A DNA stretch of 64,000 bases, taken from Desulfocapsaceae bacterium (GTDB lineage: Bacteria > Desulfobacterota > Desulfobulbia > Desulfobulbales > Desulfocapsaceae). A program made the translations under genes and the position numbers. How positions within the stretch are numbered: position 1 is the first letter of the stretch; each line of letters opens with the position of its first letter. The stretch lies in the NCBI GenBank assembly GCA_031292275.1, contig JARLHL010000012.1, positions 1 through 64,000 on the forward strand, given 5' to 3'. Shown piece after piece: positions 50,507 to 54,868 of the stretch. The notes below the pieces were generated by a model that worked only from the letters and a program-made list of their open reading frames with translations, ran no database searches and had not been told where the DNA came from.

Positions 50507-53500
50507 CTACTTTTGCTGCTGACGAAGGACCTCTCTTATTTGATCCCCCAGGGATTGACGCAACACCTCAAGCTCGTTGCGCACAATTCTAACAACGGTC
50601 TCAGCATCAAGCTGGTCAACCGAAGGCTGACCAGCTCTTTTGTGCGACATGTCCTGAGTAACACCAGGAACAGTTCCATCATCCTTACTCTTTGCAGTCC
50701 TTGCCGCATCGTGGTTGCCGTTGCCTTTTTGGATCAGCATTTTCTGTTGCCAAGACAAAACTTTCGAAGTTTCTGCCAGGATACTTTCCTGAACACTCTC
50801 GCTTCGAGATCCAGGAATCCTCGCCATCTCCAGTTTGTTAAAAACAGACAAGAGAAGTCCGTAGGCCTCCAGGCTGGCCTCAAATCGGTGTGTGTCTATA
50901 AACTGGGCGACAATAGTAATGAGCTGTAAAAAAGTCTTTTCGATCGGCTTGTCCATCCATTCACTGTTAAGCCGACTAATTTCATTAAACAAATTTTCAA
51001 GAATACGGCTTTCTGCCCCCTGACCAAGTGAGGTTATACACCCTCCCAAGATTGAGAGGCTTTCATCTTTTTGCCCCGCAGTCCCAAACAGGGTGAAGTC
51101 GTTTTGCGACAATTCATCGCGAATTTTTTCAAAGGCGGGCTCATTGCCCACAGCAAGCAACTGTGAGCCCCTCGCCTGTTGCTTCTCCGGAATGAGTTCC
51201 TGCACAGCTTCAAAACTTTGACCGAATATTTCAGAAGATCTGGAGGATTCCACCCCTTCATTCGCGGCTTTGATTTCCTTGTCGTTTCCGGCCTGAAAGT
51301 CATCCTGCTCAATAAAATATTTATTAAATTCTTCTTCTATTTCATCAATAAAGGTCTGTTCTTCAGTCTTTGTATCAGTAATTTCATCTTCATCAACCGC
51401 TTCGAAAACGACTTCTGCCGCAGCCTCCCCCGCAGAGGCTGCCTCCGGTACAGAATAAATATCTTCTTCGTCAAACTCGACACCCTCGATATATTCGATG
51501 AAGTCCTCATCTTCCTGCAGAACTGAAGGAGCATTCAGAGCTTCTTCGGCAATGAGATTTGCAGAAGATTCTGCTCTTCTTTCAGGCGTTGAGTCAAAAC
51601 CAACATCCTTGCCTGAAATGGAGGCAGTTGTATCGTCAACTGCCGAAAATATTACAGACTCATCCTCAATGTCTGCATTGAAGGACTCCACTCCCAACTG
51701 TTCCTCAACCGGTGTCTCTGGAACTCCGGCTTCAAAAAACTCAACAAGATGATCCTCACACTCATCAGCCATTATCTGCAGGAACTCTTCCTCTTCAGCA
51801 GGTCCGTCTTTCCCAAAATCATCTTCGGCGTTTTCGGTCAAACCATGAGCATGCCCTGAATCATGATATGAGAAGGCCCCGGATTCGGGTGCATCCCCAT
51901 CTTCGACATAAAGATCACGCAATGGCTCATCAATCCATTCAGAATCAGGCGAGAATTCATCTTCAGCCATTAAGGCTGTCCCAGTGGTATCTTCTCCGAT
52001 CTTTTCAGCAAGATCCACTACGGTCGTTTCCGGCATGACCAGAGGAACACTGGTTCCCGGCATGCCTTCTGCATCATCACCGAAAAACTCTTTTAAACGT
52101 TTTTCAATACCTGCCAATTCATCCTGCGGTGTAAGATTTTTCTCCGCCTGAAACTCAGATACATCATCATGAGCGAACAATGCCGGTGCGAGCTCTTCAT
52201 TTTCAAAAGGCAATGGTTCTTCAGTTAAATCGTCATCAGCTTCCGTCTCAACATCCACACCCTGAAGAAGTACGGAGACATTTACCGGGGTCTCCTTTTC
52301 TCCAATACCAATCCCTTCCTGAGTTTGATCCGGGTGAGGGGGGGAGAATGCCTCCGTTTTATCAGGTAGAGAAGAAGTCAAAGCCTCTTCATCCCGGATT
52401 TCCGCATAATTTTCACTCAATGCCGGTGCCGGCTCAGAACCTTCATGCGGTAAGGCTTCTTCATTGGAATCATCATCGGCTTCCGTCTCGACATCCACAC
52501 CCTTTAGGGCCTGTTCTTCACTCGTCTGTTCAGCCTGGGCTCTTGGCGATTCATCGCCGAAAAGTCCATTCAGGCGAGATTCCATTTCATCGACCAGATC
52601 AGTTTTATTTTCTTCATCTTCGTGAATCGGATGGTCTACAATCTCGACCGCATTAACTTCAGCATCACCGAAAAAGCTCGAGATCTTCCCATCAACTTTC
52701 TCTTTCTCCTGATAATCCAAGGACGCATCCCCTTCATCTTCTCTAAATCCATGGATATCTTCCGGAAGATCGGCAAAGGCAGGAACAATCTCGTCATCAG
52801 AAGAGTATTTTGAAGTAAGATCATCCTCGTCTGAACAGTTTTCCTCCGCTATGGCCTCAGGTGAAATTGTCGGAGCAATTATTGCTTTAAAGGCATTGAA
52901 TTTATCTACCTCCGGCAACAAGACTCTTTTCTCTTCATCGCCTGTCAAACCGTTATTGACTATTTTTTCCAGACTCAAGAAGAAAGAGTGAAGAAGTTTA
53001 AAAGCATCAACATGGGCATTACTTTTCTTCAGGTTGATATATGCACCAAGCGCTGCAATACCTTGCAGAATAATCAATTTAGCCTTGCTGCTGCTAAACC
53101 TCTTTTCAAGATTTCTTACTTCCTCACCTAGATTGATCAATTCATTTTCGGTTATTTCCCAGTCCATTCCGAAAATTATTGCCTTCAATTTCAATAAGGG
53201 ATCATCATTCTCCAAATCTGCCGGCCGACTCGCAACATCCAATGCGGTTCCGACATCCTGCGGATATTCATTACCGGATTTTTCAGTCTGGCCTCGCTCA
53301 CCGGAACGACTTATTTGTTTTTTAAATTTTTCAAATTTTTCGACATCTTCCATCAAAATGCCTTTCTTCTCACTTTCCGACATTGAGGAGGTCGATACAA
53401 TTTTTTCAAGGTTGGAATAAAATCGCAGAAGAAGTTTAATGGAATTGGGATTTGCGTTTGCCTTTTCCTTGTAAATATAGCGGCTTATCTTCTCAAGGGC

Positions 53501-53758
53501 CTGTACATACACGAGATTAATCTTATCATTGGCCCAGATGTCTTTCAGATCAAGAAGCTCGACATTAAATTGCCGCAGGATATCATCCGTAATCTCCCAA
53601 TCGATGGATAAAATAAGCTCCTTGAGACGCGAAATTGGTGATTCCGCATCACTCAAAAATTCGAAGAGGTCAACATTGCCAGTCTGCAAAGAGCCGTCAT
53701 ACTCGTCCATACCAACGGTTAAATCATCGTCATATTGACTTCCTGTATGCTGTTCCAC
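50507..53758 (-). CDS. Large acidic protein with three helical repeats, partner of the MglA-like GTPase
   Basis: Protein of 1083 residues that I cannot place in a known family. Two homologous helical repeats of about 105 residues lie at 41-150 and 187-293; each has LKELILSIDWEITDDILRQF-like and LLRFYSNLEKIV-like helices and ends in EKKGILMEDVEKFEKFK-like text. A third, more diverged copy is at about 903-1006 (LFNEISRLNSEWMDKPIEKT to ILAETSKVLSWQQK). The middle (about 300-900) is very acidic and probably unstructured, with a duplicated segment GVDVETEADDDSNEEALP / GVDVETEADDDLTEEPLP. The C-terminus is a coiled coil. No membrane segment or signal peptide. It is the last gene of the operon with the GTPase (12 bases upstream) and the roadblock protein. 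Confidence 0.82.
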   Translation of the reverse strand: MEQHTGSQYDDDLTVGMDEYDGSLQTGNVDLFEFLSDAESPISRLKELILSIDWEITDDILRQFNVELLDLKDIWANDKINLVYVQALEKISRYIYKEKANANPNSIKLLLRFYSNLEKIVSTSSMSESEKKGILMEDVEKFEKFKKQISRSGERGQTEKSGNEYPQDVGTALDVASRPADLENDDPLLKLKAIIFGMDWEITENELINLGEEVRNLEKRFSSSKAKLIILQGIAALGAYINLKKSNAHVDAFKLLHSFFLSLEKIVNNGLTGDEEKRVLLPEVDKFNAFKAIIAPTISPEAIAEENCSDEDDLTSKYSSDDEIVPAFADLPEDIHGFREDEGDASLDYQEKEKVDGKISSFFGDAEVNAVEIVDHPIHEDEENKTDLVDEMESRLNGLFGDESPRAQAEQTSEEQALKGVDVETEADDDSNEEALPHEGSEPAPALSENYAEIRDEEALTSSLPDKTEAFSPPHPDQTQEGIGIGEKETPVNVSVLLQGVDVETEADDDLTEEPLPFENEELAPALFAHDDVSEFQAEKNLTPQDELAGIEKRLKEFFGDDAEGMPGTSVPLVMPETTVVDLAEKIGEDTTGTALMAEDEFSPDSEWIDEPLRDLYVEDGDAPESGAFSYHDSGHAHGLTENAEDDFGKDGPAEEEEFLQIMADECEDHLVEFFEAGVPETPVEEQLGVESFNADIEDESVIFSAVDDTTASISGKDVGFDSTPERRAESSANLIAEEALNAPSVLQEDEDFIEYIEGVEFDEEDIYSVPEAASAGEAAAEVVFEAVDEDEITDTKTEEQTFIDEIEEEFNKYFIEQDDFQAGNDKEIKAANEGVESSRSSEIFGQSFEAVQELIPEKQQARGSQLLAVGNEPAFEKIRDELSQNDFTLFGTAGQKDESLSILGGCITSLGQGAESRILENLFNEISRLNSEWMDKPIEKTFLQLITIVAQFIDTHRFEASLEAYGLLLSVFNKLEMARIPGSRSESVQESILAETSKVLSWQQKMLIQKGNGNHDAARTAKSKDDGTVPGVTQDMSHKRAGQPSVDQLDAETVVRIVRNELEVLRQSLGDQIREVLRQQQK

Positions 53759-53770
53759 CCTGTCTTCTCT

Positions 53771-54376
53771 CTAAAGTAATTTTTTCTGAATTGAGACAAC
53801 TGTTGATGAAATTATCTTCTTCAGTGTCGCCGCGACATTGTACCCTTTGATTGCGCTGGCCTCAAAATAAGGGACCTTCAATCTGCTGTTTAAATCCTTT
53901 TGCAACACAGAAGTGGGCAGAATCGGAATACCATGCTCTTGCAGATCGACCTTGTTATACTGCATAACCAGTGGAATATTAAAAATACTTTCCTTATAGG
54001 ACTGTAAATTTTCATGGAGCTGGTTCAGCGATCTGATATTTTTTTCCCGCTGTTTTTCCATGGCATCGGCAACAAAAACAATCCCATCGACGCCCCTCAA
54101 TACAAGCTTTCTGGTGGCATTGTATTTAACCTGCCCCGGAACCGTATAGAGCTGAATTTTTATATCATATCCCTTTATCTGCCCCATATCAAACGGAAGG
54201 AAATCAAAGAAGAGAGTCCTGTCACCATGGGTTTTAAGGCTCACCATCTCAGATACGATCTGTTTTCGGTAGGTGCTGTTTATATACTCAAGATTTGTGG
54301 TCTTACCACCGCGCCCAGGCCCGTAATATACTATTTTTACCTGGACAATTTTGTCTTTCAAGTTGATGAAACTCAA
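53771..54376 (-). CDS. MglA-like small GTPase
   Basis: Protein of 201 residues of the bacterial Ras-like MglA/SofG group, which controls polarity, pili or gliding. Motifs: P-loop YYGPGRGGKTTNLEYI (MglA itself has G-L-C/S-G-K-T), switch region TLFFDFLPFDMG with the MglA-type insertion, G3 YTVPGQVKYNATRKL (Gln present), G4 YNKVDL and G5 EASAIKG. Arg in GRGG replaces the small residue of MglA. A roadblock protein gene lies directly upstream, as MglB does for MglA, though order and partner differ. It would be a GTP-driven switch at the membrane or cell pole. Confidence 0.93.
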   Translation of the reverse strand: MSFINLKDKIVQVKIVYYGPGRGGKTTNLEYINSTYRKQIVSEMVSLKTHGDRTLFFDFLPFDMGQIKGYDIKIQLYTVPGQVKYNATRKLVLRGVDGIVFVADAMEKQREKNIRSLNQLHENLQSYKESIFNIPLVMQYNKVDLQEHGIPILPTSVLQKDLNSRLKVPYFEASAIKGYNVAATLKKIISSTVVSIQKKLL

Positions 54377-54469
54377 TTCACAACCCCCGTCATGCTCATA
54401 TTATCAGATGTTAATCGGGTCAGTACCCCTCTCCGACGGCTGCATCCCGTCAAATGCAAGGAGAAATCG

Positions 54470-54868
54470 CTATTTCTTGCCCCATACCTGACGTATTTTT
54501 TCTATCACATCAACCACGTTCAGTCTGAGAAATCCAAGGGAAATATCTCTGCCGAACATGGAGATAAGAAGAAGTTCGTCGTCAATTTTGCTGAAATGGA
54601 TATTTGATTCCTGACCCTTATGAAAAAGGAGTGAAAATTCCTGTTCACCAACCAGTTTTGCCATCGCATCTACAGTTGCAAAATTACCGGCAGCCAGAGC
54701 GGCAAAGGAGTAAACATCGTATTTGCTCTCCCCGTTATCTTTGGCAGTAATAATATTCCCGGCCATGTCGATTATAATGACACAATCGACACCGAGCTTA
54801 ATCAGTTTGTCGGACAATATCGCATCAATCCGTTCAAGCTGCTCCTGACTGACAATACCATAATTCAT
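54470..54868 (-). CDS. Roadblock/LC7 domain protein
   Basis: Protein of 132 residues with a full roadblock domain: ILSDKLIKLGVDCVIIIDMA and GNIITAKDNGESKYDVYSF, then NFATVDAMAKLVGEQEFSLL and LLLISMFGRDISLGFLRLNV. Such domains form dimers that act as GTPase-activating or scaffolding partners of MglA-type GTPases (MglB). It is the first gene of the three-gene operon and about 93 bases from the GTPase gene. Confidence 0.92.
   Translation of the reverse strand: MNYGIVSQEQLERIDAILSDKLIKLGVDCVIIIDMAGNIITAKDNGESKYDVYSFAALAAGNFATVDAMAKLVGEQEFSLLFHKGQESNIHFSKIDDELLLISMFGRDISLGFLRLNVVDVIEKIRQVWGKK

What the first reader, a model, noticed from the sequence alone, without database searches (positions are those of the whole stretch)
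50507..54868. Three-gene roadblock / MglA-like GTPase / giant acidic repeat protein operon
A roadblock protein and an MglA-like GTPase are followed, 12 bases later, by a 1083-residue acidic protein that carries three copies of a helical repeat (41-150, 187-293, 903-1006) and a long disordered acidic middle with an internal duplication. MglA-type switches normally act through known partners (MglB, RomR, FrzS, SgmX); this partner is of a kind I do not recognise. The repeats flanking a flexible linker suggest a multivalent effector that could gather several GTPase or roadblock molecules at one site. A lone pilC lies 3.3 kb beyond the operon, so pilus control is one hypothesis.
Basis: partly seen in the sequence, partly recalled or inferred. 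Interest (0 to 1): 0.85.

Follow-up and report, generated by a model that had tools for sequence, protein, structure and literature searches.

The report
GTPase switch with CheA-derived pilus scaffold
Three neighbouring genes encode a bacterial GTPase switch and a large partner protein that appears to be built from worn-down pieces of a chemotaxis kinase, and relatives of the set often sit among the genes of the type IV pilus, so it probably controls where or when pili are extended.

Summary
In detail: a roadblock gene, an MglA-like GTPase gene and, 12 bases on, a 1083-residue acidic protein with three copies of a ~120-residue helical domain. The set is conserved across the phylum: in 247 genomes a distinct MglA lineage and the domain co-occur in 55, occur alone in 5 and 3, and are both absent in 184. 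None of 20 canonical MglA/MglB loci has the domain. The predicted fold is five helices, like CheA P1 (HPt). Profile comparison of distant members supports homology (probability 90; controls at most 2.8), against one search that favoured designed helical proteins. The phospho-histidine is absent, and 9 of 39 orthologues end in a CheW domain. I read the partner as a kinase-less, CheA-derived scaffold, enlarged here. Pilus genes (TPR-PilB ATPase or pilMNO) lie beside the set in 24 of 49 loci of the wider phylum sample and 0 of 20 controls, but in none of the 35 loci nearest the window. Most likely it is a dedicated MglA-type switch for pilus extension; direct GTPase-scaffold binding is inferred. 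Nine literature searches with MglA among the terms showed no description.

The parts
54470..54868 (-). roadblock/MglB-like protein, 132 aa, first gene
   Evidence: Pfam Robl_LC7 22.6 bits (cut-off 23; 23.2 with its neighbours); NCBIfam MglB E 1.3e-13 but 51 of 200 bits; mostly 128-171 aa in relatives
53771..54376 (-). MglA-like GTPase, 201 aa, second gene, TTG start
   Evidence: T. thermophilus MglA 3t12 E 1.3e-49, MglA 6hjh E 6.9e-48; GPGRxGKTT, R53, T78, Q82 and NKxD invariant in 21 rows
50507..53758 (-). large acidic scaffold, 1083 aa, third gene, GTG start
   Evidence: homologue in 39 of 58 relatives (own genome counted); next to MglA in all 35 loci fetched, from 35 of the 38 other genomes
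53648..53758 (-). conserved N-terminal peptide, residues 1-37 (YDDDLTVG...VDLFEF)
   Evidence: D12 and T14 invariant, D10, D11 and L13 nearly so, in 30 sequences; ten-residue pLDDT means 43-55
53294..53656 (-). pseudo-HPt (P1*) domain 1, residues 35-155
   Evidence: five helices, pLDDT above 90; CheA P1 1i5n Z 12.0, rmsd 3.0 over 113 residues
52859..53218 (-). pseudo-HPt (P1*) domain 2, residues 181-300
52670..52696 (-). short linear motif copy 1 (VDGKISSFF, then GD), residues 355-363
52559..52585 (-). short linear motif copy 2 (MESRLNGLF, then GD), residues 392-400
52433..52507 (-). linker motif GVDVETEADDD copy 1, residues 418-442
52193..52267 (-). linker motif GVDVETEADDD copy 2, residues 498-522
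52082..52108 (-). short linear motif copy 3 (IEKRLKEFF, then GD), residues 551-559
   Evidence: FFGD at 558; not matched by the pattern
50720..51079 (-). pseudo-HPt (P1*) domain 3, residues 894-1013
   Evidence: its fold was not predicted
50510..50620 (-). C-terminal amphipathic stretch, residues 1047-1083
   Evidence: sequence; a similar C-terminus in short orthologues, read by eye; not modelled

Best explanation
The operon is a dedicated MglA-type GTPase switch for the type IV pilus machine. The roadblock protein regulates the GTPase. The third protein is a scaffold derived from the chemotaxis kinase CheA: it keeps P1/HPt-type domains that no longer carry the phospho-histidine and lacks the kinase core; some shorter orthologues in other classes end in a CheW domain. 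The GTP-bound GTPase would bind this scaffold, which through its short repeated motifs and C-terminal stretch would bring the pilus extension machinery (PilB-type ATPase, PilM) together at one site, probably a pole. In Desulfocapsaceae the scaffold was enlarged to three pseudo-HPt domains joined by an acidic flexible linker, which would make it multivalent. Shown by computation: conserved gene set, co-inheritance, predicted fold and profile similarity of the domain, missing histidine, CheW in orthologues, pilus-gene neighbourhood. Inferred: descent from CheA, who binds whom, nucleotide dependence, polar location and direction of control.
For: Gene set: MglA next to the scaffold in 35 of 35 Desulfobulbia loci fetched because they carry it, roadblock seen in 34; roadblock-MglA-domain order in 30 of 40 loci of the wider phylum search, one more (L173) in another order. 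Co-occurrence in 247 genomes: 55 both, 5 MglA only, 3 domain only, 184 neither, Fisher 3e-45. MglA tree: 20 canonical rows split off at 100/100. Fold: CheA P1 Z 12.0. Homology: hhalign 90.4 for 28 distant copies, six random halves 48.5-89.7 in the same register, 26 neighbour-gene families at most 2.8, reversed at most 1.8, 30 column-permuted at most 0.9. Reciprocal test: an HPt profile run over 3540 ORFs ranks third proteins 2nd to 5th (E 0.0027-0.16) after one true HPt; three of these four best stretches lie in the P1* domain. The refined domain profile also rings weakly on HPt sites in G253 and G047. CheW: 9 of 39 orthologues. Pilus genes beside the set in 24 of 49 loci of the wider sample against 0 of 20 canonical loci, Fisher 4e-5; in the window's own order L208, L291 and L292 have the domain gene beside TPR-PilB. 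The gene after the scaffold in L199 is TPR + MshEN + T2SSE (E 3.7e-124). PilT-family genes in 58 of 58 relatives; 7 of 39 scaffold-bearing relatives have no FliF match, two of them single-contig genomes.
Against: In the 35 loci nearest the window no PilB-type or pilMNO gene was found, and the own genome has no full-length TPR-PilB (best hit covers 245-792 of 795), so for this genome the pilus link is carried over from relatives. PilT is universal in the relatives, so its presence cannot test the link. The refined profile against PDB sequences finds designed helical proteins first (E 6e-8) and no CheA among 23 matches up to E 10, so helical composition alone attracts it and its weak HPt hits count for little. 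hhalign with Desulfobulbia copies alone gives 0.4% and with all 131 copies 37%, so the assignment of the window's repeats is transitive. Z 12 lies within the background range the tool states for helical bundles, and Foldseek gave no match at E 0.001. The fusion model meant to show docking failed. FliF is also missing in 5 of 19 relatives without the scaffold.
Confidence: 0.57

Rival explanations
1. The scaffold acts upstream of the GTPase, as RomR does in Myxococcus: it places or loads MglA (exchange-factor or recruiting role) by binding the roadblock protein through its C-terminal stretch, and another protein is the effector.
For: Same general build as RomR: folded domain, disordered linker, C-terminal helix. 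RomR's C-terminal helix alone binds the MglB paralogue MglC (PMC12719032, passages). Of 60 genomes with MglA and MglB, 26 also had RomR (PMC3441718, passages), so other lineages may need a substitute. In several loci a TPR protein that could be the effector follows the scaffold.
Against: No receiver domain in the third protein. The domain is of HPt type. There are no binding data for either direction.
Confidence: 0.25
2. The helical repeat is a generic helical bundle unrelated to CheA, and the CheW domains were added separately; the protein is an ordinary disordered scaffold of a GTPase operon.
For: Hpt is not among the 25 (of 47) Pfam families shown for the 47 repeat copies; helical bundles give middling Z by chance (note); the refined profile prefers designed helical proteins in the PDB.
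Against: Helix-by-helix profile match that survives halving, with reversed, column-permuted and neighbour-family controls all low; reciprocal ranking by an HPt profile; N-terminal P1-like and C-terminal CheW order as in CheA.
Confidence: 0.15
3. The module couples the GTPase to chemoreceptor arrays: the CheW and P1-like parts dock to MCP/CheA arrays and the output is chemotaxis or flagellar control rather than pili.
For: CheW domain in 9 of 39 orthologues; CheW genes in two chemosensory clusters of the own genome.
Against: The window protein has no CheW match. 7 of 39 scaffold-bearing relatives have no FliF match. The recurrent neighbours that were identified are pilus genes and two-component or DUF4388 proteins; not every neighbour cluster was annotated.
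Confidence: 0.1

Closest known systems
FimL of Pseudomonas aeruginosa (Pil-Chp system)
   Same: A protein homologous to the N-terminus of the CheA homologue ChpA, with two HPt-like domains that have glutamine instead of histidine (PMC3019171, passages); it interacts with FimV to recruit PilG to the pilus machinery (PMC9596432, passages).
   Different: FimL works with a CheY-type regulator; the present protein is encoded with an MglA-type GTPase and a roadblock protein, carries short repeated motifs and in some orthologues a CheW domain. Sequence homology to FimL was not tested.
Myxococcus xanthus MglA/MglB polarity switch with SgmX, FrzS, SopA and RomR
   Same: MglA-type GTPase plus roadblock protein; MglA and its effector SgmX, a TPR protein, recruit the PilB extension ATPase (PMC11580455, passages; PMC7519303, listing and passages).
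   Different: The third protein has no receiver or TPR match. The MglA here is apart from the canonical MglA of the same phylum; Myxococcus MglA was not in that tree. SopA also has two folded ends and an unstructured middle, but its relation to this protein was not tested.
CheA histidine kinase (P1 and P5/CheW domains)
   Same: P1-like five-helix domain at the N-terminus and, in 9 of 39 orthologues, CheW at the C-terminus.
   Different: No phospho-histidine; the window protein has no dimerisation, ATPase or CheW match.
Actinobacterial conservons (CvnA-D)
   Same: Roadblock and MglA-like GTPase encoded with a signalling protein (PMC4316618, section 18 read).
   Different: The conservon partner is a histidine kinase; here it is a kinase-less scaffold.

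Membership tests
MglA GTPase | G1, G3 and G4 motifs with the MglA-type TVPGQ and the catalytic Arg and Gln | tested here: met
   GPGRxGKTT, R53, T78, Q82, NKxD; PDB MglA E 1.3e-49. Residue roles are recalled from the MglA literature
MglA GTPase | GTP hydrolysis stimulated by a roadblock protein | not testable with these tools
   needs biochemistry
MglB (roadblock GAP) | roadblock domain at curated cut-off | tested here: inconclusive
   Pfam 22.6 of 23 bits, 23.2 with neighbours in the frame; NCBIfam MglB 51 of 200 bits
Canonical MglA of this phylum (my label) | falls inside the canonical MglA side of the tree | tested here: not met
   the 20 canonical rows chosen are one side of a 100/100 branch, window on the other side
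HPt / CheA P1 domain | five-helix P1 topology | tested here: met
   predicted model of copies 1 and 2 and profile alignment in the same helix order; not a solved structure
HPt / CheA P1 domain | sequence similarity to HPt | tested here: inconclusive
   hhalign 90.4 with distant members and low controls, but 0.4 with the window's class alone and no CheA among PDB matches of the profile
HPt / CheA P1 domain | phospho-accepting histidine | tested here: not met
   aligned position read by eye: L, R and S in the three window copies; no conserved His seen there
CheA | dimerisation and ATPase (kinase) domains | tested here: not met
   no Pfam match in the window protein at E 1; none among the 21 families found in 39 proteins
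RomR | N-terminal receiver domain | tested here: not met
   no Response_reg match
SgmX | TPR repeats | tested here: not met
   no TPR match
FimL | sequence homology to FimL / ChpA N-terminus | not tested
   no FimL sequence was at hand

The most novel reading that the evidence does not exclude
A small GTPase has taken over the dead phosphotransfer domains of a chemotaxis kinase as its effector: a phylum-wide GTPase-chemosensory hybrid in which a kinase-less CheA remnant, rather than a phosphorelay, carries the signal to the pilus extension ATPase, and in Desulfocapsaceae it has become a multivalent, possibly condensate-forming hub whose repeated FliM-like short motif recruits several machines at once.
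Probability: 0.28. Interest if true: 0.88.

Novelty: new variant of a known kind. Interest (0 to 1): 0.75.

Why it matters
MglA switches are known mainly from Myxococcus, where the link from GTPase to pilus ATPase (SgmX, FrzS, SopA) is still being worked out. This looks like a separate solution found across one phylum (55 of 247 genomes sampled), with the partner genes lying side by side, so the open question of how a small GTPase licenses pilus extension becomes testable in a compact system. It may also give a role for HPt domains without phosphotransfer, whose function in ChpA is described as unknown (PMC12632253, passages).

Tried and rejected
Flagellar function: FliF was sought in 58 relatives; 7 of 39 with the scaffold and 5 of 19 without it have no match, so a purely flagellar role was dropped, though the contrast is not a test. 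PilT presence was uninformative because it is universal. A read-through model of MglA joined to the first 410 scaffold residues was meant to show docking; it failed, with MglA itself poorly modelled (mean pLDDT 57.6, pTM 0.30), and nothing is drawn from it. Foldseek gave no match at E 0.001. L206, found by the domain profile, is a GntR/FCD regulator (families), so one of the 45 genomes (G266) is a false positive; it was dropped before profile comparison but is among the 39 proteins. L178, L179 and L191 have the domain without MglA in the fetched piece and were left out of the 49-locus pilus count with L206. Seven of 65 genomes with weak refined-profile hits (G253, G287, G290, G325, G379, G405, G429), in frames of 721 to 1147 aa, were left out of the co-occurrence table; of these only G253 was in the HPt sample. 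The E gap between MglA groups has one exception, a truncated copy in G318 (3.3e-53). The 20 canonical loci were picked by hand from the worse group, and the 20 further better-group loci were 18 genomes without a hit plus two second copies; other second copies were not fetched. Motif patterns were chosen after seeing the sequences, and related sequences are not independent, so shuffle figures overstate significance. A FliM-like reading of the short motif is recalled and untested. In some searches only 10-12 of the papers found were listed.
Full report
What is there. On the minus strand the window holds a roadblock gene (54868-54470), an MglA-like GTPase gene (54376-53771) and, 12 bases later, a 1083-residue acidic protein (53758-50507). 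The GTPase matches solved MglA structures at E 1.3e-49. The large protein has no Pfam match at E 1, only weak hits in NCBIfam and PHROGs, and no PDB sequence match at E 1. Its three repeats exceed all of 1000 shuffles in each pairing. Records found with its N-terminal domains are named Desulfopila, Desulfofustis, Desulforhopalus, Desulfocapsa and others (214 relatives, best 80 kept); NCBI places Desulfofustis in Desulfocapsaceae, class Desulfobulbia.

Conservation. A homologue of the large protein is found in 39 of 58 relatives. In 35 Desulfobulbia loci fetched because they carry it, MglA is adjacent in 35 and the roadblock gene is seen in 34. The repeat profile matches 203 of 242 genomes of the class and 45 of 247 of the phylum, one of them a false positive. 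Of 40 loci then fetched, 30 show roadblock, MglA and the domain gene in this order, and L173 has the three in another order. To avoid choosing by outcome, MglA and a refined domain profile were each searched in the same 247 genomes. MglA hits fall into two groups with a gap (E 1.5e-57 and better; 3e-53 and worse, with one truncated exception). The better group and the domain (E 1e-8 or better) are both present in 55 genomes, MglA alone in 5, domain alone in 3, neither in 184. Of 20 further better-group loci, 18 of them from genomes without a hit, 13 have the domain gene; in five the next gene looks like a DUF4388 (PATAN) protein (confirmed by Pfam in L250), in L248 it is TPR-PilB, and L265 shows neither. 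Of 20 canonical MglA/MglB loci none has the domain. In a tree of 109 MglA sequences the canonical 20 are one side of a 100/100 branch; the domain label needs 4 changes on the tree.

What the partner is. AlphaFold gives both N-terminal repeats as five-helix domains with pLDDT above 90. VIA-align places CheA P1 near the top (1i5n Z 12.0, rmsd 3.0 over 113 residues; 2lp4 11.9; 3kyi 11.0), but the tool warns that helical bundles can reach such values by chance, and an unrelated repeat protein scores 12.6 at rmsd 16.9. Profile comparison is stronger: 28 distant copies against 30 HPt domains of the phylum give probability 90.4 and P 1.4e-6 over 90 columns, in the same helix order. Six random halves give 48.5 to 89.7 in the same register. 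Reversed profiles give at most 1.8, 26 families of neighbouring genes at most 2.8 and 30 column-permuted profiles at most 0.9. With all 131 copies the value is 37 and with the window's class alone 0.4, so the assignment of the window's repeats rests on the chain of homology through distant members. In the reciprocal test an HPt profile over 3540 ORFs ranks third proteins 2nd to 5th behind one true HPt; they are 46 of 176 hits at E 50 though only 89 of 3540 ORFs. Against this, the refined profile run on PDB sequences puts designed helical proteins first (E 6e-8) and lists no CheA, so its weak hits on HPt sites in G253 and G047 count for little. At the place of the phospho-histidine the window copies have L, R and S (my reading). 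Nine of 39 proteins carry a C-terminal CheW domain. P1-like first, CheW last and no kinase core is best explained as a CheA remnant.

Short motifs. A motif of the form [IV][DE]xx[IVL]Dx[LF]F, in a looser pattern, lies in front of the domain in 42 of 49 proteins of the wider phylum sample that have at least 25 residues there, 51 being examined (shuffles: mean 0.6, maximum 4). The same pattern occurs 80 times in the linkers of 34 of 37 Desulfobulbia ORFs (shuffles 4.9, maximum 12). The patterns were chosen after inspection.

Pilus link. In the wider phylum sample 24 of 49 domain loci have, on the same strand in the fetched piece, a PilB-type ATPase gene or pilM/N/O; canonical controls 0 of 20. 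One of the 49, L208, is from the window's own order, where L291 and L292 also have the domain gene beside TPR-PilB (2 of 10 TPR-PilB loci looked at). In L199 the next gene encodes TPR, MshEN and T2SSE domains; the other ATPase genes were recognised by similarity to it. In the L197 type a receiver-DUF4388 gene, roadblock, MglA, scaffold, a PAS histidine kinase, an NtrC-type regulator and pilMNO follow each other. A GspG-type pseudopilin lies just upstream of the roadblock gene in L207, and a secretin gene lies in L190. In the 35 loci nearest the window none of these was found and only a divergent pilC is near, in 11. The own genome lacks a full-length TPR-PilB. Flagella are dispensable: 7 of 39 scaffold-bearing relatives have no FliF match.

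Mechanism. I think it most likely that the GTPase in its GTP form binds the pseudo-HPt scaffold, which concentrates pilus extension components. This parallels FimL, a protein homologous to the ChpA N-terminus with two HPt-like domains lacking histidine that with FimV recruits PilG to the pilus machinery, and MglA/SgmX, which recruit PilB in Myxococcus. The binding steps are inferred. A RomR-like upstream role is the main rival.

Novelty. A 2014 survey states that neighbourhoods of MglA groups 1, 4 and 5 vary widely, with occasional PATAN genes (PMC4316618, section 18 read), and names no CheA-like partner there; its supplementary table was not seen. Nine searches with MglA among the terms listed no paper whose title or abstract start describes this module; several lists were capped and the library is open-access only.

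Noticed in passing
window 53759-53773 and relatives: The GTPase gene ends in TAG and the third gene follows in frame after 12 bases. One search lists 35 in-frame MglA-scaffold pairs (the total examined was not printed); of its 22 Desulfobulbia rows, window included, 18 have TAG. Shared ribosome-site spacing is the likely reason; read-through was not tested.
   Followed up: partly
G000:C65:58291-58557 (L001, L068): A second, clearer roadblock domain (E 1.8e-15) lies in a 438-residue frame elsewhere in the genome.
   Followed up: no
L249, L250, L253, L266, L267: MglA of the same lineage without a detected roadblock gene is followed by a DUF4388 (PATAN)-like protein instead of the scaffold; DUF4388 with a cyclic-nucleotide domain was confirmed in L250 only.
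   Followed up: partly
L180, L207, L251: The gene after the scaffold encodes TPR repeats or a TPR-like region joined to a Ser/Thr protein kinase, so TPR-bearing outputs vary between lineages.
   Followed up: no
L171:5188-6258: Scaffold orthologue with apparent transmembrane helices after the domain (read by eye); one of 39 proteins scanned has a HAMP match, probably this one.
   Followed up: no
L080: The Desulfobulbales-type gene lies on a 4.2 kb contig labelled Chlorobiaceae, probably a mis-binned contig.
   Followed up: no
L215, L216: The own genome has two chemosensory clusters, one with a 970-residue CheA-receiver hybrid (genes named by eye apart from CheW and Hpt hits).
   Followed up: partly
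L181, L185 (and L182): In L181 and L185 sensor (Cache-HAMP), DUF4388 and other genes lie between MglA and the scaffold; L182 shows the same genes but its MglA lies outside the fetched piece.
   Followed up: no
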